DNA of 38,971 nt, taken from positions 1 to 38,971 of the forward strand of contig JAPOYJ010000059.1 in NCBI GenBank assembly GCA_026706635.1, written 5' to 3'. The position numbers and the translations under genes were made by a program. The DNA comes from Gemmatimonadota bacterium (GTDB taxonomy: Bacteria > Gemmatimonadota > Gemmatimonadetes > Longimicrobiales > Gaopeijiaceae). Of the stretch, positions 1,705 through 12,975 are shown piece by piece (the first letter of the stretch is position 1; every line of letters begins with the position of its first letter). A model generated the notes under the pieces. It worked only from the letters and a program-made list of their open reading frames with translations, made no database searches and was not told where the DNA came from.

Positions 1705-3234
1705 TCAGCGGCTCGGTCCGGCATCGCGGTCTGGCCCGCGCGTGGGCGGCCTTATCACCAGCCGTGACCGCGCGGTCTCGCGACGCCAGATGTCTCGTAA
1801 TACTCGGTCAAGCCTGTCACTCGCTCGTCGAGCCGCTCGATTCGCCGCCTCAAGGTGGCGTTCTCCCCGGTCTGCCGCTCGACTTGCCGACGCAAGGCTT
1901 CGACCTGTTCGGATTGCCGCCGCCGTTCCGTTTCGGACTGCGAGGACAACCTCTTCAAGGCCTCCGTCAACTGCCCCTCCAACTCGGTCATACAGCTTCC
2001 TCGCTCTCTTGATGGCTTTCAGGCAGGCCGTCCGCGCCAGATCCAGCGCGGTTTGTCCAGCGTCCCCGACGGCCGCACCACGGCCTGCTCTTCCTCGATC
2101 TCCGGCAGCGCGATCCTCCGAGCGACCATCTCGATTCTCACGAGAGTCCGCCAGGTCTCCGCGATCTCGCAGTCCAATCCGGCCACCGTCTTGATCCGGG
2201 CTTGGATGCTCCTCGACCACCACCGCATCGTCGCCCAGCTTCCGGCGGAGATGCCGAGCGAGCGGTTCAGGCCGAAGATCAGCGGCTTTGGCCAAGCCTT
2301 CAGCGGCAACGTGTGCATCCGCGCGGCCGCTTCCACCGTATCGCGCCCGATGGTACGCAGCGCGTTCCTCGCGGCGCGCCGCGAGTTCCCGGCGCGCCGA
2401 GCGAGCTCGCTCGCGGTCAACTTCCCTGTCTCCCTGCGTTCGCTCTCCAGCCGCCTCCTCAACCGCTCGGTCGAATCGTCCGGGCTGAAAGTCAAAGGCG
2501 AACAGCCGTCCCCTCAGCCGCCAACGGTCCCCGGTGTCGGGGTCCATCGCGGTCAGGTATTCCTTGCCTTGGCGCGGCACTTCCAAGCCCGCCTCCCGGA
2601 GCGCGGCGACGACATCGAAGCGGTCCTTCACCGCGCCGTGCTCGACGCGCTGGATCAGGTAGTCCCGGATCAGGTCGCGGGGGGAGGCTTCGAGCCGGAG
2701 CCCGGCCCGCAGTCGCGCCGCCTCGACGTAGGCGCGGTGTCCGGGCTGCTCTACCCTGGCCCGGGCCGGATCGTCCGGACGGCCCCAGCCGTGCTCGTGG
2801 TTGAAGGCGTCGCGGAGCGGGTCGAACGTTCTCCGCCAGCCCGGAGGGGCAATGTTGAGGCTTCGCCCGGTCTCAAGGTCGCATCGCGCGGCGAGAACAT
2901 GGACATGGGCGCCGCCGCCCTCCTCACGGTGGAGCACCGCCGCCCATGCGTAGCGGTCGGGTTCGAGCCCCGCCCAGGCCGTCTTCTCGAAGGCGTCCAG
3001 AACCGCGCCGATCTGTTCGTCGGTTGGATGGTCCTCCGGTGCCCACGCGATCACGCCGGAGGTGTACCTGTGCTCGAAGCCCAGAGTGTCCGCCACCGAC
3101 GCCACCCGGTGAGGATCGCCCCGTAGGACTTCGACGCCTTCGCGCGGCTTCGCCGCCGCGTCCCGCTCCCCGAGGAGGTACTTGGCCGCAGCCCGCGCCG
3201 ATCCGGTTCCCCGCGCCAGGAACTTAATGTGCAT
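1705..3234 (-). CDS. MOBP-like relaxase (mobilization nuclease)
   Basis: A conjugative relaxase that nicks the origin of transfer and pilots the strand. The N-terminus GSARAAAKYLLGERD carries the probable nicking tyrosine (Y19). The metal-binding histidine cluster is at H102 and H110-x-H112 (HREEGGGAHVHVLAARCDL), followed by LNIAPPG and FNHEHGW, all typical of relaxase/mobilization nuclease domains. Its ATG overlaps the end of mobC by 11 bp, so the two are coupled. Up to roughly residue 330 the sequence is convincing. Beyond that it becomes arginine/glycine-rich and shadow-like, while other minus-strand frames (2019-2230 and 1755-1991) look more protein-like. The 3' part may therefore contain indels, and the printed end at 1705 is less certain than the start. 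It belongs to the integrative mobilizable element. Confidence 0.88.
   Translation of the reverse strand: MHIKFLARGTGSARAAAKYLLGERDAAAKPREGVEVLRGDPHRVASVADTLGFEHRYTSGVIAWAPEDHPTDEQIGAVLDAFEKTAWAGLEPDRYAWAAVLHREEGGGAHVHVLAARCDLETGRSLNIAPPGWRRTFDPLRDAFNHEHGWGRPDDPARARVEQPGHRAYVEAARLRAGLRLEASPRDLIRDYLIQRVEHGAVKDRFDVVAALREAGLEVPRQGKEYLTAMDPDTGDRWRLRGRLFAFDFQPGRFDRAVEEAAGERTQGDREVDRERARSARRELAARREERAAYHRARYGGSGRADAHVAAEGLAKAADLRPEPLARHLRRKLGDDAVVVEEHPSPDQDGGRIGLRDRGDLADSRENRDGRSEDRAAGDRGRAGRGAAVGDAGQTALDLARTACLKAIKRARKLYDRVGGAVDGGLEEVVLAVRNGTAAAIRTGRSLASASRAADRGERHLEAANRAARRASDRLDRVLRDIWRRETARSRLVIRPPTRGPDRDAGPSR
1755..1991 (-). CDS. Coiled-coil segment in a different frame inside the relaxase 3' end
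   Basis: A 78-codon frame whose product reads as a classic heptad coiled coil rich in Glu, Arg, Gln and Leu (for example QVEALRRQVERQTGE), ending GLTEYYETSGVARPRGHGW. It overlaps the relaxase frame completely, so both cannot be ordinary single-frame genes. It is either a small mob accessory protein with its own ATG at 1991 or, more likely in my view, the true C-terminus of the relaxase displaced by one or two frameshifts. The coiled-coil pattern is seen directly; the interpretation is inference. Confidence 0.35.
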   Translation of the reverse strand: MTELEGQLTEALKRLSSQSETERRRQSEQVEALRRQVERQTGENATLRRRIERLDERVTGLTEYYETSGVARPRGHGW

Positions 3235-3562
3235 CGGCTTCCGGGCTCTCGGCGGGATCCAAGGCGCCGAGCGCCCGGTCGAGGGCGATCAGGTGGGCGA
3301 TCACCTCGACGGCCTCGATGGCCTCCTTGTGGGTATTCGCCCAGCGAGCGATCTGGTTGAGGTTGTTCCCGAGGCGCGCCAGTTCGCGGGTGCGCCCGCG
3401 CTCGACCTCGGCGTGCGCCACGGTCCAGGTGCGGACCCGGCCAATCGACCGGCGCACCAGATCCGACAAGGTCAAGCCCGCCGAGCGCGCCTTGGCGTGC
3501 CACTCGGCACGCTCCGCCTCGGTGGCGCGGACCTTCACCCAGACTGCGCGGCCGGCGCTCAC
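3224..3562 (-). CDS. mobC: MobC-like relaxosome accessory protein
   Basis: A 112-aa plasmid-mobilization accessory protein that binds near oriT and helps the relaxase open the DNA. The N-terminal half resembles a ribbon-helix-helix DNA-binding module (VWVKVRATEAERAEWHAKARSAGLTLSDLVRRS). The C-terminal half has the MobC signature RLGNNLNQIARWAN. It is the first gene of the mob operon and overlaps the relaxase ATG. The start at 3562 gives a normal family length. The sequence upstream (3563-3670) is rich in inverted repeats, as expected for an adjacent oriT. Confidence 0.88.
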   Translation of the reverse strand: MSAGRAVWVKVRATEAERAEWHAKARSAGLTLSDLVRRSIGRVRTWTVAHAEVERGRTRELARLGNNLNQIARWANTHKEAIEAVEVIAHLIALDRALGALDPAESPEADAH

Positions 3563-4013
3563 GGTGCGCCGTTTCCGTTGTGGGGGTCACAGGGGGCACG
3601 GCCCCCCGCCAGCCCCTGCCGGGGACTCGCGAAGCGTGGCCCCAAAGGGTGGGCTGGCTCTCCCGCATTAGCGGGCCAAACCGTCCTTCGGAGCGCGGAA
3701 TCCGGGGTCGTCGGAGTCGCCATGACGTGAAGTCAGGGGACCGTTTCGCGCGGTGTCAACAGGCGCCGAAACGGCGATGTCCAAGGGGTTCCAGCGCCGT
3801 CCAGAAGGCGGAGCGGCCTCCGCCAGCGGCACCCCCATCGCCTTCCTTACTCGATCCAAGGGCCGGTCAAGCGTCCTCGCCGGTCGCGTTGCGTCGTCGT
3901 AGGTTTTTCGGCGGCGGTGACGCGCCGTGTGGTGTCTTCGTCCGCGGGCCGTAGCCCGAAGTCCAGCGCAGCGGATCCATCTCCTACCCCCTGAACGATC
4001 TCACGAGTGTCCG
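3563..4013. other. Divergent gap between mobC and the PLD gene; candidate oriT
   Basis: A 450-bp region with no convincing gene. The mobC-proximal part has an inverted repeat GGGGGC/GCCCCC with a 3-nt loop (3592-3606). It also has a wider dyad, GCCAGCCC (3608-3615) against GGGCTGGC (3651-3658). Dense dyads directly before mobC and a relaxase are where a transfer origin is normally found. I cannot identify the nick site by consensus. A 63-codon minus frame at 3668-3859 has no recognisable features. Confidence 0.4.
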
Positions 4014-5264
4014 ATGAGCAGAAAGGTGCTCCGTAGCGGCAACCTCCTTGACCGCCTCAAGGACCTTCTGAATGAGCATACGCATGTGGACATTGCTACG
4101 GCTTGGGCCACCGGCGGAGAGCATTTGCGAGTGTTGGCCGATGCTGCGAATCGCGAATCTGGAGGTGTGAAGGTCCGCGCCCTCGTCGGGATCTGGGGGA
4201 ACGCGACCAGTCCAGACGCGTTGGAGGAGTTGAGCAGGATCGCCGACGGCGACCTCAGAATCGTCGAGAACGACCGTCTCTTCCACCCCAAGCTGTACCT
4301 GTTCGAGAGACGCGGGGACGGTATCGTGAGGCGTCAGGCGTGGATCGGAAGTGCGAACTTTACGAAGGCCGGATTCGGCGGTCAGAACGAAGAGATCGTG
4401 TTGGAAGTTGGCACGGGGGCTAGCGCCGATGCGTTGGCCGCCTGGTTCCAAGAACGGTGGGATGACTGCCCCACGCCGAGGCCTGTCTCGGAAGTGATTC
4501 GCAAGTACGAGGAAACACGGAAGCAGAACCCGCCCCCTCCGTCCCTCCGGCATGTCGTCTCGGGGCCGGTGTCCCGGCGGAGAGATCTTCTCGGGGACGC
4601 CCATCGTCCCCTGACTCTCGATGAGTACCGTCAGTCTCTGCTGCGGTGCGAAGAGATGTTGCGGAAAGAAGGAATGGCTTGGCAGATCTTGGACCCCAAA
4701 GGTGCCAGCCACATGAGAGTGATCGCCCGGCGTCGTGAGTTGCTGTTGGGCGACACGAGTTGGTCGGAGCTTGATCGCGAATCTCTCCAGCAACTGACAG
4801 GCAGCAGGTTCAAGCGGGAGTCGCAGTTCTGGGGGCTGCTCGGACGCATGACTCGCACCAACCGGCAGGCAGTGCTCCGGAACGAGGGCGAGATTCGAGC
4901 CGTCTTGAACGAGATTGGGAAGGCTCCCGATGCCAGCTTTCCGGACATCGCCGTTGAGGCGATGCAGAAACTGAAGGCCATTACGGTCAAGGGTGTGGGC
5001 TGGGCGACCCAGACGCTGTTGCTGTCGCTGGCGCGCCCGGATCGGCTGCTGCCGCTGGGCAGCACGTCGCGGAACGCGCTTGGCACACTCTCGGGCAAGG
5101 CCCCTACGACCCTTGGCAAACCCGAGAATTACCGAAAACTGCTTCTGTGGCTCTATGGTCAACCGTGGTACACCGACGGCCCACCAGCGGACGAGGGCTT
5201 GGAGCCGATATGGCGATTCCGAGCCGCTCTCGTTGATGCGTTCGCGTACGAACCCGAGAAGTAG
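4014..5264 (+). CDS. Phospholipase-D-fold nuclease, probable defence or restriction enzyme
   Basis: A 416-aa protein (from ATG 4014) with one HKD-type active site: H91-x-K93 in FHPKLYLFERR, then WIGSANFTKAGF (GSAN 112-115) and a Glu near 127. A single HKD half-site implies an active homodimer, as in BfiI- and NgoFVII-type metal-independent nucleases. The C-terminal half includes a helix-hairpin-helix-like segment (KAITVKGVGWATQTLLLSLARPDRLLPLG) that may bind DNA. The frame is open upstream to 3927, but the added residues look non-coding, and MSRKVLRSGNLLDRL is a natural start. It sits alone between the mob genes and the integrase, so it is mobile-element cargo. A role in anti-phage or anti-plasmid defence is inferred; a repair nuclease is the alternative. 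Confidence 0.8.
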   Translation: MSRKVLRSGNLLDRLKDLLNEHTHVDIATAWATGGEHLRVLADAANRESGGVKVRALVGIWGNATSPDALEELSRIADGDLRIVENDRLFHPKLYLFERRGDGIVRRQAWIGSANFTKAGFGGQNEEIVLEVGTGASADALAAWFQERWDDCPTPRPVSEVIRKYEETRKQNPPPPSLRHVVSGPVSRRRDLLGDAHRPLTLDEYRQSLLRCEEMLRKEGMAWQILDPKGASHMRVIARRRELLLGDTSWSELDRESLQQLTGSRFKRESQFWGLLGRMTRTNRQAVLRNEGEIRAVLNEIGKAPDASFPDIAVEAMQKLKAITVKGVGWATQTLLLSLARPDRLLPLGSTSRNALGTLSGKAPTTLGKPENYRKLLLWLYGQPWYTDGPPADEGLEPIWRFRAALVDAFAYEPEK

Positions 5265-5275
5265 GGGGTCGGCAT

Positions 5276-5319
5276 CTAGCGACGTGTCCCTCGGAACGTC
5301 CTCGGTAGCAGGTCACTAG
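5276..5319. terminator. Inverted repeat between convergent PLD and integrase genes
   Basis: CTAGCGAC at 5276-5283 pairs with GTCACTAG at 5312-5319 with one mismatch. The right-hand CTAG supplies the integrase stop codon. The position between convergent genes suggests a bidirectional 3' end signal. There is no U-tract, so this is only a candidate. Confidence 0.3.
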
Positions 5320-6473
5320 CCGATATAGAGACTCCAAGCCTGAAGGACCTCGGCCCGCCTTTCCAGCAGGTCGGACCGTTGATACGCCTGAACGACTTGG
5401 CTTCTCGGGACGTGGGCAAGGCAGGCTTCCGCAACCTCGGCGGAGACGCCCGACTCGGCCATCCACGACCGGGCGCTCGACCGGAATCCGTGCAGTGTCG
5501 AGGCGACCCCGGCGCGCTTGAGCACCCTTAGCGGCGCTTTCGGCGGAAGCGGCCCGCCGGTCCGCGACGGAAACACCAGCGTCGATCCGGCCGACAGCTT
5601 GCGTGCCCGTTCGAGCACGTCGAGGGCTGCGGTGCTGAGCGGGACGGTGAACTCACGGCCCGCCTTCATCCTCTCGACCGGGATCGTCCACGTCGCCGCG
5701 TCCATGTCGATCTCTTCCCAAAGCGCGCCCCTCGCTTCGCCGGGACGGACGGCGGTGAGGACGATCAGTTCGACGCACAGAGCCGCCGAAGGATGCGTGT
5801 CGGTGGTCCCGCGAACCGCTCGGAGCGCGGTCCCGACCTCTCCGTGCGGGAGCGCGCGGTGGTGGGTTGTCGTGTGGCCGTTCGCCTTCGGCAGCGCAAC
5901 GACCGCCCGGTCCACCGGGTTGTCCGCCCGGTAGTTTCGACCGATGCACCAGCGAAACACGGCGGCGATCCGGTGCCGGGCCTTCCGCGCCGCGGCGGGC
6001 TTCGAGTTCCAGATCGGAGAAAGACAGCGCAGCACGTCCGCGCTCTCGATCCGGTCCACCCGCTTGTCGAGGAGCGGGGCGGCATGGAGGCGGAAGGTGG
6101 ACTCCCACTGCTCGGGAAGCGGGCTCCCCTCCTTCCACGCCTCGCGGTGAATCTTGATCGTCCGTTCGGCGGCCTCGGCGAACGTCGGGACGCCGCGCCC
6201 GCGCGGGTCCTGGCCCAAGAGGACGCCCCGGCTGTTGTCGAGCGCCTTCTGGCGGGCCTCGGCAAGCGTCACCTCGGGATACGGCCCGAGTCCGATCGAG
6301 GTTAGCCGTCCCTCAATCCTGACCCGCTGCCGCCATGTCTTGGTGATCCGGCCATCCAGCGTCCGGTGGACCCGGAGGCTCAGTCCGCGACCGCCCCGTC
6401 CGTCGCCGTAGACTCCGGGCCGGTTGACCGTTCGCACGAACGCGGCTGAGAGTGTCCTCGGTCTCTTCGTCAT
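5316..6473 (-). CDS. P4-type tyrosine integrase
   Basis: A site-specific recombinase of 385 aa that integrates and excises the mobile element. The N-terminal 90 residues match the DUF4102/arm-binding domain of P4-like integrases (LSLRVHRTLDGRITKTWRQRV...GLGPYPEVTLAEAR). A core-binding SAM-like domain follows (about 95-190). The catalytic residues are in order: R243 (TAVRPGEARG), K270, H328-x-x-R331 (LHGFR), H354 (CLAHV) and Y364 (AYQRSDLLERR). All are present, so it should be active. It is transcribed away from the truncated LRR gene, and the short AT-richer stretch 6474-6632 beside its start is the expected attachment region. Together with mobC and the relaxase it defines an integrative mobilizable element. 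Confidence 0.95.
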   Translation of the reverse strand: MTKRPRTLSAAFVRTVNRPGVYGDGRGGRGLSLRVHRTLDGRITKTWRQRVRIEGRLTSIGLGPYPEVTLAEARQKALDNSRGVLLGQDPRGRGVPTFAEAAERTIKIHREAWKEGSPLPEQWESTFRLHAAPLLDKRVDRIESADVLRCLSPIWNSKPAAARKARHRIAAVFRWCIGRNYRADNPVDRAVVALPKANGHTTTHHRALPHGEVGTALRAVRGTTDTHPSAALCVELIVLTAVRPGEARGALWEEIDMDAATWTIPVERMKAGREFTVPLSTAALDVLERARKLSAGSTLVFPSRTGGPLPPKAPLRVLKRAGVASTLHGFRSSARSWMAESGVSAEVAEACLAHVPRSQVVQAYQRSDLLERRAEVLQAWSLYIG

Positions 6474-6632
6474 GGTGTTCCATCTTTACGGTGTATCACT
6501 CATTGCAGCACTACACGGGGAAGAATACACCGGATGGCAATGGACCGCAAGGGACGAAGAGACGCCGTGAAACCTACAGAATGCGTTGTCCAATAACGTT
6601 TTATAGCCTATCTGCTAGACCTTATCGGACTA
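6474..6632. other. Probable attachment-site and integrase promoter region
   Basis: An AT-richer strip between the integrase start and the broken end of the LRR gene. It contains a perfect 8-bp inverted repeat, CGGTGTAT (6489-6496) against ATACACCG (6525-6532), suitable as an integrase or regulator binding site. The LRR gene loses its reading frame at about 6630-6640, so an element boundary probably lies there. I see no tRNA gene. The att core cannot be fixed without the other end of the element. Confidence 0.4.
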
Positions 6633-7565
6633 CGCTGGAAGATGTGTGCCGAGTTCGGGCGGAATCTCGCCGGTCAGCCCATTGCCGCCGAGCTGGAGCT
6701 CCTCGAGATTCGGCAGACTCGCCAGCTCGTGCGGTATCTCGCCGGTTAGCGAATTGTCGCTGAGTTCCAGCGTAACAACCCGGCCGCTTGCATCCGTGCT
6801 CACCCCGAACCACTGGTCAAGGGGTTCGTCGGTCTTCCAGTTCCTGTTGTTCCTCCAGTTGTCGCCGTCCAGTTCGTCGTACAGGTTCTCCAACACTCCC
6901 CAGTCGGGGGAGCGAACGACAGTCACCGTAAAGGCCTGCGTGGCCGAGAGCCCACCCAGGTCGGTCGCCGTCACCGTCATCTCGGCCGTACCCAGCGACA
7001 CGCTGCTCACCGTGACCGTGGTCCCCGACACTAACACCGTCGCCACCCCGGAGTCCGATGTGGTGGCCACGTAGCTCAGCGCATCACCATCCGGGTCGCT
7101 GAAGTTGCCCGAGACATCCACCTGCCCCACCCCCCCCACGACCATCTCGATGTCATCGATCGGTTCGCCAGCCACCGGCGCACGGTTCGGCACCGCCACT
7201 AGGAAGTCCTGCTCCGCAAGGAGCCCGCCGGGGTCCGTAGCGTTGACGGTCACCGTGGCGTTTCCCGCCGCAACCCCCGTCACCCGCGCCGTGGCGCCCG
7301 ATACGCTGACCGTGGCAATGCCCGTGTTCGACGAGCTCGCGGTGTATGTGAGGACATCTTCGTTCGGGTCGCTGAAGTACCGCGAAAGATCGACCGACTC
7401 GGTGCTGCCTACCTCGACCGTCAGGTCCCCTATACTACTATCGGCAACTGGCGGCTGGGGCTCGCTGCACCCAACCACCCATACGGCGACCGCGACCAGG
7501 ACGGAGACGCCCGAGGCGAGGCGGAGAGCGGCGCGGGTCAGGTGGCGATGAACCGGTGGCGACAT
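6630..7565 (-). pseudogene. Truncated Ig/cadherin-like and leucine-rich-repeat lipoprotein
   Basis: A surface lipoprotein with a lipobox ending at C33 (VWVVGC, counting from the ATG at 7565). Two roughly 90-residue cadherin/BIG-like modules follow (ADSSIGDLTVEVGS... and APVAGEPIDDIEMVVGG..., each with a PV..I.D..V..G opening and an FSDPNED or FSDPDGD turn). Next comes an LRR entry segment (LYDELDGDNWRNNRNWKTDEPLDQWFGVS) and then about two leucine-rich repeats (LTGEIPHELASLPNLEELQLGGNGLTGEIPPELG). Proteins of this kind normally carry many more repeats. Here the frame ends abruptly at THLPA-stop next to the integrase, so I read it as cut by integration of the mobile element. The frame is open upstream to 7616, but the ATG at 7565 gives the normal signal peptide. 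Confidence 0.75.
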
Positions 7566-7618
7566 TCTACAGACATGGCACGGCTCCTGTTGGTGGTCGA
7601 TATGTGTTGTCAACACTT

Positions 7619-8887
7619 CTAGCGTCTTCGCGACCGCTTCGAGCTCGCCTTCGCCTTCGTGGAGCTCCTGGAGCTGGACCTCGCCGTGGCTGTGGAGCGC
7701 TTCGCCGGGCTTGCCTTCGCCTTCGCCGGTGCGCGACTGGGTGTGTACGGCCTGGCGGTTGTGCGCCTAGGTACGCTCGCCTTCGCTTTGGGAGTCGAGC
7801 GCCGCGAGGTGCTCGGCGTGGCGGATGTGCGCCGCCTAGTCGGGGCTGACGTCTTCACCGTGGCGGTCGGACGCTTTGCCGTGCCCGCCCTGGCGGTCGA
7901 TCGCTCCCTGGTGGACGACACGGGCTTCACCCTGGAGGGCGTGCGCGTCCGGGTGCTCCGGGTGCTCGCCCTCGACACCCTCTGCTCCCTGGTCCCCGAC
8001 GAATTCACCGTCACGGTCCGGTCCGTGCGCGTCGTCTGCCTCTCCGTGCGCGGGCGGGTGGTGGGACCGGTACGGGGACGACGGGTCCCGCCCAGCCCGG
8101 ACCGCGGCCGCCTCGGGCCACGATCGTCGCCGAAGGCGGCCCGCGAACCGCGCGGGACCGCGATGCCCCTCGCGGATCCGCCACCAGAGCTCCCGCCCTC
8201 CACATCGCCCTTCCCCCGTCCGCTCCCACTTCCCCTCGGCTTCGCCTTCCCCCTGCTCTTGCCGCCGCCTCTCGCCACGCCCCTCTCCTTGTACCTGGGT
8301 CCGAAGAGCGGGGAGCCCCGCGCCAGACGTCCGCCGGTGTGGTAGCCGCGGCGGCGTCCGTCGAAATGGCCGTCGTGGTAGCCGTCCCAGTATCCCAGGT
8401 AGTAGTGGTTGCGGTAGCGGTAGTGGTCGTACCCCCAGCCAAGTCCGACGAAGTAGCTCGAGCCCCAGCCGCGGTAGGCGTGGCCGTAGGGACCGTAGGA
8501 GAGCCATCGGTGGGACGGCCACCCCAAAAAACCGAAGGAGAGCCACCAGGTGCGGTGCGTATTCCAATACAGGGAGCCTGGCCCGGTGCGCAGGAATGCG
8601 CCGCACCCCGTCCACGGACCGTGCCAGGGATCGAACGGGTCATGCCACGCCGGGTGCCACGGGTCGTACCAGGAGCAGTCCCAGCATTCGTGCGGGCTCC
8701 ACCCCCGGTGGTAGGCGCCGGGGTCTACGCACAGGTAGCTCGCCCCTGGTGCTCCATGCAGGAGCTGCAGGGAAAGTCCAACCGTGGCCTGTGCGTCGCC
8801 AGCCGTAGGGGTGAGGGCCAGCGCTGCCAGCAGGGCGGCGGCCGCGGCCAGCCGTCCGGTCGCTCTCGTCCTCATCGGGCGCGTCAT
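7619..8887 (-). CDS. Secreted Trp/His/Tyr-rich protein with a long basic tail
   Basis: A 422-aa protein of unknown function. Residues 1-33 form a signal peptide (MTRPMRTRATGRLAAAAALLAALALTPTAGDAQA). Residues 50-190 are extremely rich in Trp, Tyr, His, Gly and Asp, with short motifs such as DPWHPAWHDPFDPWHGPW and YDHYRYRNHYYLGYWDGYHDGHFD plus a few cysteines (CWDC). From about 195 onward the protein is Arg/Lys/Ser/Thr/Ala-rich and repetitive, resembling histone H1-like or AlgP-like tails (KAKAS, RRST, SRRSTPKAKAS). The aromatic/His domain could bind metals, heme or polysaccharide, and the tail could bind DNA or anionic polymers. Those roles are guesses from composition. It sits between the LRR lipoprotein and rho with no clear operon partner. 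Confidence 0.7.
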   Translation of the reverse strand: MTRPMRTRATGRLAAAAALLAALALTPTAGDAQATVGLSLQLLHGAPGASYLCVDPGAYHRGWSPHECWDCSWYDPWHPAWHDPFDPWHGPWTGCGAFLRTGPGSLYWNTHRTWWLSFGFLGWPSHRWLSYGPYGHAYRGWGSSYFVGLGWGYDHYRYRNHYYLGYWDGYHDGHFDGRRRGYHTGGRLARGSPLFGPRYKERGVARGGGKSRGKAKPRGSGSGRGKGDVEGGSSGGGSARGIAVPRGSRAAFGDDRGPRRPRSGLGGTRRPRTGPTTRPRTERQTTRTDRTVTVNSSGTREQRVSRASTRSTRTRTPSRVKPVSSTRERSTARAGTAKRPTATVKTSAPTRRRTSATPSTSRRSTPKAKASVPRRTTARPYTPSRAPAKAKASPAKRSTATARSSSRSSTKAKASSKRSRRR

Positions 8888-9391
8888 CTAGCTATCCTCC
8901 GCTGTCGGGTAGGGCTCGGGTCGCCGAACTAGCATATTTCGTGCCAGGATTCTGCCAGTCCACTAGGTGACGCTGCTGCAATGCGATAGCGTACGGCGGG
9001 GCCGCCCGGGGGCAATCGCGGCCGTCCCAGGGTGGAGACGGCCGTCCCGGGGTGGGGGGACAGGAGGGGCACCCGGATGTAGCGCCTCCAGGGCCGCTCT
9101 CCATATGGGGGCGACAGACCAGAAACCAGCGACACCTTGCCAATTCCGATCGCGGGGGCGAATGTTCATGCGGTACCGAATGCCGCCCCGCTGCGCCCGC
9201 CCCCGGCGGGTGCCCATCTCCGCTAGACGAAGGTGTCGCGGATGCGGGGGCGCACCGCTCGGACCTCCTCGAGCCATCTCCGGGATGGCCCTCGAACGGC
9301 GATGTTCGCCGCGAGGAGCGCGGGTCCAGGTCGGCAGGATTGAGACTCCCCCGCCTAGGCCCGTGCGAGCTCCAACCTCAGGCAGCGTTGA
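8888..9391. other. Gap upstream of rho
   Basis: A 500-bp divergent intergenic region with no convincing gene; the short frames here lack protein-like composition. It contains a two-copy, 20-bp tandem repeat beginning GCCGTCCC at 9021 and 9041. It must hold the promoters of the secreted protein and rho, but I cannot assign clear boxes. Confidence 0.4.
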
Positions 9392-10738
9392 ATGCAAGTG
9401 AACGACGAAGCAGACGTGCAGCAGAGCGAACCCGCGCCCGACGGTGCTGGCTCCACCGACTCCCCGGCCGTCGAGAGGCCAGCGGCCTCCGAACGAACCG
9501 CCAAGGGCCCGCCCCGACGCAGCCGCCGCAGGCGGGGCAGGGTACGCCCATCTTCCCACCGCGACCGCGGCGCTCACAGCGGCACCAGTGAGCCCCGCGA
9601 GCCCGGTGCGCCGCTCGGTGTGCTGGAGGTGATTGGGAGCGGATCGGGGTTCGTGCGCCGCCCCGACGACGGATATGTGCCCGGCAGGAACGACATCTTC
9701 GTCGGGTCGCGCCTCATCGACAGATTCGGACTGCGGACGGGCGACGAGCTCGTTGGCACCGTCGGGCGTCGTCCCCGCAACGGCAAGAGCCCGCCGCTGC
9801 GCTTCCTGGAGCAGGTCAACGGAATGGCGCCCGACGGCGTCGCCGGCCGGCTCGAATTCGACCGCCTCGGTGCCGTGCATCCCCGGCAGCAGCTTACTCT
9901 GGAGTGCGGGCGCGTGCACGCCGGAGAGCCGGACATGACCAACCGCGTCATCGACCTCTTCTGCCCGATCGGCAAGGGCCAGCGAGCGCTCATCGTGGCA
10001 CCATCGAAGGCGGGAAAGACGACCGTCCTGCAGGCGGTGGCCGAGGGGGTCGAGCGCAACCACCCGGAGTGCGAGCTGCTGATCCTCCTGGTTGACGAGC
10101 GCCCGGAGGAGGTCACCGAGATGGAGATGTGCGGCTACGGGGAGGTCATCGCCTCCACCTTCGACCTGACCGCCGACCGCCACTGCCAGGTCGCCGAGAT
10201 CACCCTCGAGCGCGCCCGGCGCCGGGTGGAGGCCGGGAAGGACGTGGTCATCATCCTCGACTCGATCACCCGCCTAGCGCGGGCCCACAACACCGTCAAC
10301 GAGGGGAGCGGGCGCACACTCTCCGGGGGGCTGGACGCCAACTCGCTCGAGAAGCCCAAGCGCTTCCTGGGGAGCGCCCGCCTTATCCGGGAGGACCAGG
10401 GCGGGGGTTCGCTGACGATCATCGCCACTGCGCTGGTCGACACCGGATCCCGGATGGACCAGGTCATCTTCGAGGAGTTCAAGGGGACCGGAAACAGCGA
10501 GCTCGTGCTCAGCCGGGAGCTCGCGGACCGGCGCATCTTCCCGGCCATCGACCTGAGGGCGTCCGCTACGCGCAAGGAGGAGCTGCTGCTCTCGCCCGAC
10601 GGGCTGCGGATCTCTCGTGCGATGAGGCGGCGACTCTCCTCCTCGATGCCCGCCGATGCGATGGAGGAGCTCCTGGGGGTGATGCGCCAGACCAGGAACA
10701 ACGAGGAGCTGGTCGCGCGGGCCTTGGATCGGATCTAG
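9392..10738 (+). CDS. rho: Transcription termination factor Rho
   Basis: The hexameric RNA-dependent ATPase that terminates transcription. After a 75-residue, Arg/Pro/Ser-rich, disordered-looking N-terminus, the protein has the cold-shock-type RNA-binding fold (GVLEVIGSGSGFVRRPDDGYVPGRNDIFVG). Then comes the ATPase core: Walker A APSKAGKTT, the LLVDERPEEVTEME and GEVIASTFDLTADRHCQVAE segments, Walker B DVVIILDSITRLARAHN, the RNA-contacting Q/R-loop region, and the DRRIFPAIDLRASATRKEELL motif. The usual Rho_N helical domain is not apparent and is replaced by the basic tail. The Walker A has Ser where E. coli has Pro (APPKAGKT). The TAG stop lies inside a palindromic repeat that separates rho from the convergent SRPBCC gene. 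Confidence 0.97.
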   Translation: MQVNDEADVQQSEPAPDGAGSTDSPAVERPAASERTAKGPPRRSRRRRGRVRPSSHRDRGAHSGTSEPREPGAPLGVLEVIGSGSGFVRRPDDGYVPGRNDIFVGSRLIDRFGLRTGDELVGTVGRRPRNGKSPPLRFLEQVNGMAPDGVAGRLEFDRLGAVHPRQQLTLECGRVHAGEPDMTNRVIDLFCPIGKGQRALIVAPSKAGKTTVLQAVAEGVERNHPECELLILLVDERPEEVTEMEMCGYGEVIASTFDLTADRHCQVAEITLERARRRVEAGKDVVIILDSITRLARAHNTVNEGSGRTLSGGLDANSLEKPKRFLGSARLIREDQGGGSLTIIATALVDTGSRMDQVIFEEFKGTGNSELVLSRELADRRIFPAIDLRASATRKEELLLSPDGLRISRAMRRRLSSSMPADAMEELLGVMRQTRNNEELVARALDRI

Positions 10739-11478: not shown

Positions 11479-12975
11479 ATGCCCGATTCCTCCGAACCGG
11501 TCTACGGCGACGTCATGGAGCGCCTGCTCGGAGCCGCAGCCCTCTTCCACGGTGCCGAGACGCTCGCCGATCTCGCCGGGATCGACATGGCGCTGCTTCT
11601 GCAGCAGAGCGGCCTCAACTCGTCCGCCGAGCGCGTAGGTCTGCTCGGGGCCGCCAGCAAGCTGCGCTCCGAGATACGGATCGGCAGGGAATTCGCCGAT
11701 GTGCTCCGTGTTCTGGATCTGCGCACCAAGAGGATCGCGCTCCAACGAACCTACTCGCGCACTCCGGTGACGCTCGCGGTCCTCGGCGATGGCTTCGGCG
11801 TCACCCGCGAGCGGGCCCGCCAGCTGGAGGTGCGGCTGCGGGCGACTGTCCGCGAGAGCGTCGGCGAGTCGTTGGACCGGGCCTCCAGGTGGCTGCGCAG
11901 GCTGGCAGGCCCGGCGGCCGAGGCGGGGGAGTTCCGGCGAGCCGTCGATCTCATCGTCGGCGATTCCCCGCCCGAGTGGAGGGAGGCGGCCGAGGTGGCG
12001 CTGATGCAGGTGGCCGACTTCGAGCCGATCGACGGCCTGGTGGCCGACGCCCACTTCCGCCAGCTGGTCGCCGAGGCGGGCCGACTCGCTCCCGGCCTGG
12101 CCGACGAGATCGGCCTGGTTGACGAGGGGCGACTCCGGGCCGAGCTGGGCACCGCAGATCTGGTCGAGTGGGAGGGACTACTTCGCAACGCAGGTCTCTT
12201 CCGCGTCCGGGGCCGCCTGACGCTGAGGGACACTCGCCGGGTGCGCGTGCTGCTGGCCCTTCAGGAGGCTGGCGCGGGGTGCACCCAGAGCGAGATTGCC
12301 GGCATGACGGGGATTGCCGACAACTCGTCGCTGGCCAGCATGCTCTCCGCGGACCCGCTCTTCGTACGCATCACCAAGGACAGGTGGGGATTGCGGGAGT
12401 GGACGGACGAACCCTACAGGGGAGTCGTCAACGCGATTGTCAGGCGCATCGAGGAGGGTGGCGGTTCGGCGGACGCCAACGAGCTGGTCGAGGACATCAC
12501 GACCACCTTCGGGATCCTCCCGGCGACGGTCCGGAACTACCTGGGCACCGCCAAGTTCAGAATCGAGAACGGTCAGGCGAGCATCGTCGAGTCCCCCGAA
12601 ACCCCGGTCGCCAGCCTGGAAACCGCCCGCGATGTCGTCTGGCACCGGGACGGAACCCCGGCGCTCCGCTTCGAGGTGAGCGAGCAGCACCTGCGCGGGA
12701 ACAGCCAGAAGGTCTCGCCTGCGGTGGCGCAGCAGCTGGGTGTGGGGCTGGGAGGCTCCGTGCGGATTCCCTTCGTGCGCCCCCGGAAGGTCGACGCCGC
12801 TTCTCTCATCTGGCGCTCCTACGACCCGAACGGACCCGAACTGGGGTGCCTCCGGGTGGCACTCGGGGCGTGCGGGGCCACCCCGGGGGACGAGGCCTTC
12901 GTGCTGCTCGAGCGCGAGGGGCTGCGCCTGCTCACCGACGCCTCGCAGTTCGGGGAGGCGTCAGCCGACGACTAG
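11479..12975 (+). CDS. Sigma-70 region 4-like and winged-helix DNA-binding protein
   Basis: A 498-aa protein with a sigma-70 region 4 type helix-turn-helix at about 94-120 (TLAVLGDGFGVTRERARQLEVRLRATVRE). The phrase VTRERARQLE is the classic region 4.2 recognition helix. A second module (VRVLLALQEAGAGCTQSEIAGMTGIADNSSLASMLSADPLFVRITKDRWGL) resembles HARE-type winged helices, and a third (ADANELVEDITTTFGILPATVRNYLGTAKF) looks similar. The C-terminal region (residues 370-490) is beta-rich and unassigned. It lacks sigma regions 2 and 3, so it is not a full sigma factor; it may be a transcription regulator or nucleoid factor. It is a single gene convergent with the M16 peptidase, and its stop lies within repeat copy E. 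Confidence 0.75.
   Translation: MPDSSEPVYGDVMERLLGAAALFHGAETLADLAGIDMALLLQQSGLNSSAERVGLLGAASKLRSEIRIGREFADVLRVLDLRTKRIALQRTYSRTPVTLAVLGDGFGVTRERARQLEVRLRATVRESVGESLDRASRWLRRLAGPAAEAGEFRRAVDLIVGDSPPEWREAAEVALMQVADFEPIDGLVADAHFRQLVAEAGRLAPGLADEIGLVDEGRLRAELGTADLVEWEGLLRNAGLFRVRGRLTLRDTRRVRVLLALQEAGAGCTQSEIAGMTGIADNSSLASMLSADPLFVRITKDRWGLREWTDEPYRGVVNAIVRRIEEGGGSADANELVEDITTTFGILPATVRNYLGTAKFRIENGQASIVESPETPVASLETARDVVWHRDGTPALRFEVSEQHLRGNSQKVSPAVAQQLGVGLGGSVRIPFVRPRKVDAASLIWRSYDPNGPELGCLRVALGACGATPGDEAFVLLEREGLRLLTDASQFGEASADD

What the first reader, a model, noticed from the sequence alone, without database searches (positions are those of the whole stretch)
7619..8887. Secreted Trp/His/Tyr-rich domain fused to a histone H1-like tail
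After a signal peptide, about 140 residues are dominated by Trp, Tyr, His, Gly and Asp, including runs such as DPWHPAWHDPFDPWHGPW. About 225 residues of Arg/Lys/Ser/Thr/Ala repeats follow. Export of such a basic tail is odd. The protein could bind metal or heme with the first half and extracellular DNA, LPS or polysaccharide with the second, for instance as a matrix component.
Basis: partly seen in the sequence, partly recalled or inferred. Interest (0 to 1): 0.5.

Follow-up and report, generated by a model that had tools for sequence, protein, structure and literature searches.

The report
Exported two-block sticky protein, sigma-54-controlled
A Gemmatimonadota bacterium makes an exported protein, half rich in tryptophan and tyrosine and half in arginine, that belongs to a family matched in no protein library searched here and probably works as a self-sticking, surface-binding glue switched on through sigma-54.

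Summary
The gene is on the minus strand (8887 to 7619, 422 aa): signal peptide, Trp/Tyr/His/Gly block with a conserved cysteine pair, junction SPLFGPRYKE, then a tail of net +54. It is not an orphan or a frame artefact. A profile built here matches one place per genome in 59 of 394 genomes of the class, all 59 in one family of Gemmatimonadota, including the 23 same-genus genomes listed. Both halves are under purifying selection (dN/dS 0.09-0.34, nine pairs). A divergent rho gene lies nearby in 18 of 18 relatives' loci and in 15 of 24 test members. New: a sigma-54 (-24/-12) element at a near-fixed distance before the start; the best site scores at least 10 of 12 in 54 of 59 upstream regions, against 2, 1 and 2 of 59 in controls. 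Histidine is not conserved and the tail is Arg-based, so metal or heme binding and 'histone H1-like' are not supported. No Pfam, NCBIfam or PDB relative was found. Best reading: a disordered, self-associating, polyanion-binding envelope or matrix protein built on aromatic-arginine contacts. Anatomy and promoter conservation are shown; function is inferred.

The parts
7619..8887 (-). whole gene, 422 aa plus stop
   Evidence: purifying selection in relatives; single match in own genome
8792..8887 (-). signal peptide, residues 1-32, predicted cleavage A32|Q33
   Evidence: alignment with Q33 invariant in 23 of 23; model helix 10-24; no dedicated signal-peptide program was available
8318..8791 (-). 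aromatic (Trp/Tyr/His/Gly) block, residues 33-190; family-conserved cysteines C68 (8684-8686) and C95 (8603-8605)
   Evidence: no confident fold
8285..8314 (-). junction motif SPLFGPRYKE, residues 192-201
   Evidence: K200 (and R218 beyond it) invariant over 21 diverged members
7622..8284 (-). Arg/Ser/Thr/Ala/Pro tail, residues 202-422, net +54
8931..8946 (-). sigma-54-type -24/-12 element, TGGCACG-N4-ATGCT, 59 nt before the ATG (consensus recalled)
   Evidence: (only match to TGGCACGN5TGCW in the window, 0 of 100 shuffles); rpoN in own genome
8895..8900 (-). ribosome binding site GGAGGA
   Evidence: read directly
9392..10738 (+). rho-type transcription terminator gene, divergent neighbour found in relatives too

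Best explanation
The gene encodes a Sec-exported, largely disordered two-block protein whose transcription depends on sigma-54 and an unidentified enhancer-binding activator. After signal-peptide removal, the aromatic block (Trp/Tyr/Phe among Gly/Asp/Pro spacers, with one conserved Cys pair that can form a disulphide outside the cytoplasm) and the Arg-rich tail act as complementary stickers within and between molecules. The protein therefore self-associates into a condensed or gel layer, and its free Arg charge attaches it to polyanions such as LPS, exopolysaccharide, sulphated glycans or DNA. It would serve as an inducible envelope or matrix glue. Shown by sequence: the gene, layout, selection, conserved promoter element, neighbourhood and distribution. 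Inferred: export (strongly), disorder (from low-confidence models), use of the promoter, self-association, the target and the biological role.
For: Layout kept in relatives: in the 57 of 60 members with at least 150 tail residues in hand, the exported block has 15-33% W/Y/F (median 26.3%) and the tail 0-2.5% (median 0), tail net charge is +18 to +73, and the block has at least two Cys in 56 of 57. dN/dS 0.09-0.34 in both halves, nine pairs. Q33 after the predicted cut invariant in 23 of 23. Sigma-54-type site of at least 10 of 12 in 54 of 59 upstream regions versus 2, 1 and 2 of 59 in three controls; best site 44-67 nt before the start in 54 of 59. rpoN in 21 of 21 genomes. No fold: mean pLDDT 47.4 and 36.2. 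Literature: a secreted disordered tick adhesive protein coacervates through Arg and aromatic residues (PMC11794139, passages); Arg-rich plus Tyr-rich polypeptides phase-separate (PMC13339138, abstract); sigma-54 is linked to genes of the bacterial exterior (PMC3162934, passages).
Against: No experiment. Low AlphaFold confidence can mean a shallow, gappy alignment rather than disorder. The JACS abstract says cation-pi contacts are not essential in that system and that Coulombic forces and the Tyr hydroxyl matter; the window's aromatic block is itself slightly positive (net +2), so Coulombic pairing between the halves would be weak. G165's tail is less basic (net +18, 11.6% Arg/Lys). No matrix or polysaccharide gene was recognised beside it. 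The exact sigma-54 pattern is not commoner than its reversed control genome-wide. In five of 59 upstream regions the best site is below 10 of 12, and G110's best site lacks the -12 GC. Upstream regions of relatives are not independent.
Confidence: 0.5

Rival explanations
1. Surface adhesin of the HBHA type: the basic tail is the working part and binds sulphated glycans of an animal host or of its own capsule; the aromatic block only anchors the protein in the envelope.
For: HBHA binds sulphated glycoconjugates through a C-terminal Lys-rich repeat region (PMC3293801, abstract). Tail charge is kept across members.
Against: Does not explain the conserved aromatic content and Cys pair of the first half. 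The tail is Arg-, not Lys-based. Any host-linked distribution was not tested.
Confidence: 0.2
2. Metal-responsive or envelope-stress periplasmic protein in the manner of ZraP, also sigma-54-dependent: the exported block binds metal or unfolded envelope proteins.
For: ZraP is a zinc-binding periplasmic chaperone made from a sigma-54 promoter under envelope stress (PMC4987338, passages). The window's block has 14 His, and the conserved Cys pair could be a ligand.
Against: His is not conserved: 0.6-9.7% across 57 members, one His in G208. No Pfam or NCBIfam hit in any of 23 members scanned at E 0.01.
Confidence: 0.12
3. Nucleic-acid-binding protein kept in the cell: the N-terminus is not cleaved and the tail compacts DNA or RNA, with a link to rho nearby.
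For: Long Arg-rich tail; neighbourhood with rho.
Against: Signal peptide with Q33 invariant in 23 of 23, conserved Cys pair; the gene diverges from rho and has its own promoter element.
Confidence: 0.08
4. The frame is a non-coding or composition artefact of GC-rich DNA.
For: Low-complexity, GC-rich sequence with long open frames on both strands.
Against: dN/dS 0.09-0.34 in nine pairs, conserved motifs, conserved promoter element, one match per genome in 59 genomes.
Confidence: 0.01

Closest known systems
Tick-saliva glycine-rich protein GRP77 (secreted Arg/aromatic coacervating adhesive)
   Same: Secreted, disordered, Gly-rich; Arg and aromatic residues as stickers (passages of PMC11794139)
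   Different: Eukaryotic, 77 residues, Arg and aromatics interspersed; here they are segregated into two long blocks with a Cys pair and a junction motif; a sequence relation was not tested directly
Mycobacterial HBHA
   Same: Bacterial adhesin with a long basic C-terminal repeat tail containing Pro (PMC3293801 abstract)
   Different: Lys- not Arg-rich; and, as recalled, no cleaved signal peptide, a coiled-coil first half and no aromatic block
ZraP
   Same: Exported protein from a sigma-54 promoter (PMC4987338 passages)
   Different: No family match for our members; His not conserved; no basic tail in ZraP (recalled)
Histone H1-like bacterial proteins (AlgP, Hc1/Hc2; recalled)
   Same: Low-complexity basic tail with Ala/Pro/Ser/Thr
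   Different: Those are cytoplasmic and Lys-rich (recalled); here a signal peptide and Arg

Membership tests
Gemmatimonadota family defined here (aromatic block, YKE junction, Arg tail) | profile match over block and junction | tested here: met
   window E 2.0e-26 with profile A5 (the window is one of the 21 rows); 59 of 394 genomes match, all in one family, 24 of them not recognised before
Gemmatimonadota family defined here (aromatic block, YKE junction, Arg tail) | signal peptide, two or more Cys in block, Arg tail nearly free of aromatics | tested here: met
   the window has four Cys in the block
sigma-54-dependent genes | GG/GC -24/-12 element at conserved place, and rpoN in the genome | tested here: met
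   consensus recalled
sigma-54-dependent genes | enhancer-binding activator and its site | tested here: inconclusive
   dyad TTG-N4-8-CAA in 11 of 36 upstream regions (1000 shuffles: mean 1.3, maximum 5), 10 of 11 exactly 23 nt before the -24 element; not in the window; several of the 11 are close relatives; no activator sought or identified
histone H1 / H1-like proteins | Lys-dominated tail | tested here: not met
   Arg/(Arg+Lys) median 0.93, minimum 0.65; also no Pfam hit
HBHA | sequence relation to HBHA | tested here: inconclusive
   no Pfam or NCBIfam family of any kind matched 23 members; whether those libraries hold an HBHA model was not checked
HBHA | binds heparin or sulphated glycans | not testable with these tools
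   needs purified protein
ZraP / metal-binding periplasmic chaperones | conserved His ligands | tested here: not met
   His 0.6-9.7%, HxH absent from 25 of 36 members; the Cys pair as ligand not tested
Arg/aromatic coacervating adhesives | disordered, aromatic and Arg stickers in quantity | tested here: met
   composition and lack of a confident fold only
Arg/aromatic coacervating adhesives | phase separation and adhesion | not testable with these tools
   needs purified protein

The most novel reading that the evidence does not exclude
A lineage-specific bacterial extracellular condensate protein: one gene per genome encodes a secreted polypeptide in which the two sticker classes of FUS-like condensates (recalled comparison), aromatic and arginine, are separated into two blocks, and a dedicated sigma-54 promoter releases it on demand as a self-assembling, disulphide-set glue or coat of the cell surface.
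Probability: 0.3. Interest if true: 0.78.

Novelty: new variant of a known kind. Interest (0 to 1): 0.55.

Why it matters
It turns an odd single frame into a conserved family with a defined promoter element, neighbourhood and layout in a phylum with few cultured members. If the mechanism is right, it is a simple natural example of an exported two-block condensate under sigma-54 control; it would let one ask directly what sigma-54 controls on the surface of Gemmatimonadota, and would offer a sequence-defined bioadhesive.

Tried and rejected
Plain sequence searches first suggested an orphan: the genome-contig scan with the single protein gave no relative; 20 relatives gave none at E 0.01; one search gave 13 weak hits besides the own gene, of which I read seven loci and kept one, L009. 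The two-row profile from it found the rest. Three of the 27 hits (L040-L042) were short fragments and were dropped; two of those genomes (G256, G149) hold a member elsewhere, beside rho. G012 and G036 have runs of unknown bases in or near the tail; G012 (L020) was left out of alignments A2-A5 but kept in the counts. G236 was dropped from the promoter count because only 57 upstream bases were in hand (its best site scored 12), and G246, G215 and G230 from the tail count because the contig ends; G189, G252 and G229 are also contig-cut but kept (tails of at least 150). G149 is a member by place and layout only: its tail holds 12 aromatic/His/Cys residues and profile A5 misses it.

Metal/heme binding was rejected as the conserved function (His not conserved). 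'H1-like' was rejected (Arg, not Lys). A link with the LRR/Big lipoprotein just downstream was tested by conservation: no relative of it, nor of the integrase, PLD or relaxase frames, at E 1e-6 in the 18 fetched stretches (4.8-17.5 kb each). A genome-wide sigma-54 regulon was attempted: exact-pattern counts do not exceed the reversed-pattern control (2 against 6 in the own genome; 9, 5, 5 against 14, 7, 8 in three others). The dyad-plus-promoter pattern gave six matches in 10 genomes, five of them this gene's own promoter and one elsewhere in G207, against three for the control; five of the 10 genomes gave none. No sigma-70 promoter or terminator by the simple scan of 7000-9600. No Rfam family or tRNA in the window. 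I saw no paper on such a protein in the listings of the keyword searches (open-access library only; titles and abstract starts, 10 or fewer listed each). Passages of PMC10469786 were seen but did not settle which order this is. Some loci were first read in the wrong orientation and several starts first chosen wrongly, then corrected. Start codons are my choice from alignment and spacing, which affects promoter distances (uncertain for G080, G215, G009; for G187 I used an approximate N-terminus, not a verified start codon).

Full report
What is there. The frame of the finding is real and lies on the minus strand, 8887 to 7619, 422 aa. Seven bases separate GGAGGA from the ATG. Residues 1-32 are a predicted signal peptide, ending A-Q. 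Residues 33-190 are the aromatic block. Residues 192-201 read SPLFGPRYKE. Residues 202-422 are the basic tail. The window protein has two further cysteines in the block.

It is a family. Single-sequence searches nearly missed it. One relative in the same genus (L009; BLASTP 4e-22 for that single comparison) gave a two-row profile that matched 27 of 121 genomes of the taxonomic family, 24 of them real on inspection, the own gene included. A rho gene lies nearby and divergent in 18 of 18 fetched relatives' stretches. I then used rho as an anchor: of 20 further rho-upstream stretches, 12 held a diverged member and eight did not (by construction these 12 lie near rho); eight of the 28 rho loci read were not fetched. 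A profile of 21 members then matched 59 of 394 class genomes at E <= 1e-4, one place each, all 59 in one family, among them the 23 same-genus genomes listed; the non-matching rows are listed only in part. One further member, in G149, is seen only by place and layout. That makes 60, of which 24 had not been recognised before and served as a test set. The isolate names suggest to me marine-animal sources, but no call shows this.

Both halves are selected. In nine pairs of relatives dN/dS is 0.11-0.34 in the exported block and 0.09-0.34 in the tail. In the 57 of 60 members with at least 150 tail residues the block has 15-33% W/Y/F and the tail 0-2.5%; the tail is 177-363 residues, net +18 to +73; Arg makes up a median 93% of its basic residues; the block has at least two Cys in 56 of 57. 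His ranges from 0.6 to 9.7%, and HxH is absent in 25 of 36. So what selection keeps is aromatic content plus arginine, kept apart, and not histidine or lysine.

Promoter. On the minus strand at 8946-8931 stands TGGCACG-N4-ATGCT, which fits the sigma-54 consensus (recalled); it is the only match to TGGCACGN5TGCW in the window, with none in 100 shuffles. The same element precedes the relatives: with a 12-point consensus score the best site reaches 10 in 54 of 59 upstream regions and 11 in 40 of 59; in three controls (other strand, first 160 nt of the gene, reversed sequence) 10 is reached by 2, 1 and 2 of 59 and 11 by none (G236 left out for short upstream). The best site lies 44-67 nt before the start in 54 of 59. 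In the 24 test members, 19 reach 10. Relatives are not independent. rpoN is present once in each of 21 genomes searched, the own one included. A dyad upstream suggests an activator site in 11 of 36, but is not seen in the window, and no activator was identified. In the test set, rho lies divergent within the fetched stretch in 15 of 24; several of the others are cut by contig ends.

Structure. AlphaFold2 gave mean pLDDT 47.4 for residues 1-229 of the window protein (23 sequences) and 36.2 for a relative (20 sequences); only parts of the signal peptide exceed a ten-residue mean of 65. No Pfam or NCBIfam family at E 0.01 in any of 23 members, no PDB sequence match, no PHROG for the window protein.

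How it most likely works. An exported, disordered chain with separate aromatic and Arg blocks should attract itself and polyanions. A secreted tick protein behaves so through Arg and aromatic residues (passages seen, PMC11794139). A chemical study of Arg-rich with Tyr-rich chains also saw phase separation but concludes that cation-pi contacts are not essential there (abstract seen, PMC13339138). Sigma-54 has been linked to genes for the bacterial exterior across phyla (passages seen, PMC3162934). I therefore favour an inducible envelope or matrix glue, at about even odds; an HBHA-like adhesin and a ZraP-like stress protein are the main rivals. The target polyanion, the inducing signal and the location (periplasm, surface or outside) are unknown.

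Against. There is no experiment; disorder is inferred; G165's tail is weakly basic; several genera of the family (for example g11, g17, g18 among the rows listed) show no match; the own-genome count of the promoter pattern is below its control (2 against 6), so the promoter claim rests on conservation of place, not on genome-wide enrichment.

Noticed in passing
window 1705-6473: Relaxase-like frame, PLD/NgoFVII-type nuclease and a tyrosine recombinase downstream of the gene; no relative in the 18 fetched relatives' stretches, so possibly a mobile element beside this gene in this genome.
   Followed up: partly
window 6630-7616: Frame with a lipoprotein-like start, Big/Ig-like and leucine-rich repeats, beginning just after the gene's stop on the same strand; no relative in the 18 fetched stretches.
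   Followed up: partly
L051 and other relatives, downstream of the gene: Conserved frames follow the gene in relatives (components in up to 16 of 17 genomes, both strands, shadow frames included); one opposite-strand frame in L051 reads to me as urocanase (recalled, not scanned), so possibly histidine-degradation genes.
   Followed up: partly
window 11479-12975: Protein with weak sigma-70 region 4 and HTH matches, with a relative in 13 of 18 relatives' stretches near rho.
   Followed up: no
29 genomes: 27 of 29 genomes give two rho matches at E <= 1e-80, a closer and a more distant one.
   Followed up: no
L152 (G001), L143 (G001), L144 (G025): Sigma-54-like sites 69-79 nt before a small heat-shock-like protein (recalled resemblance) and before a similar small protein with a hydrophobic N-terminus in two genomes: possible further members of a regulon.
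   Followed up: no
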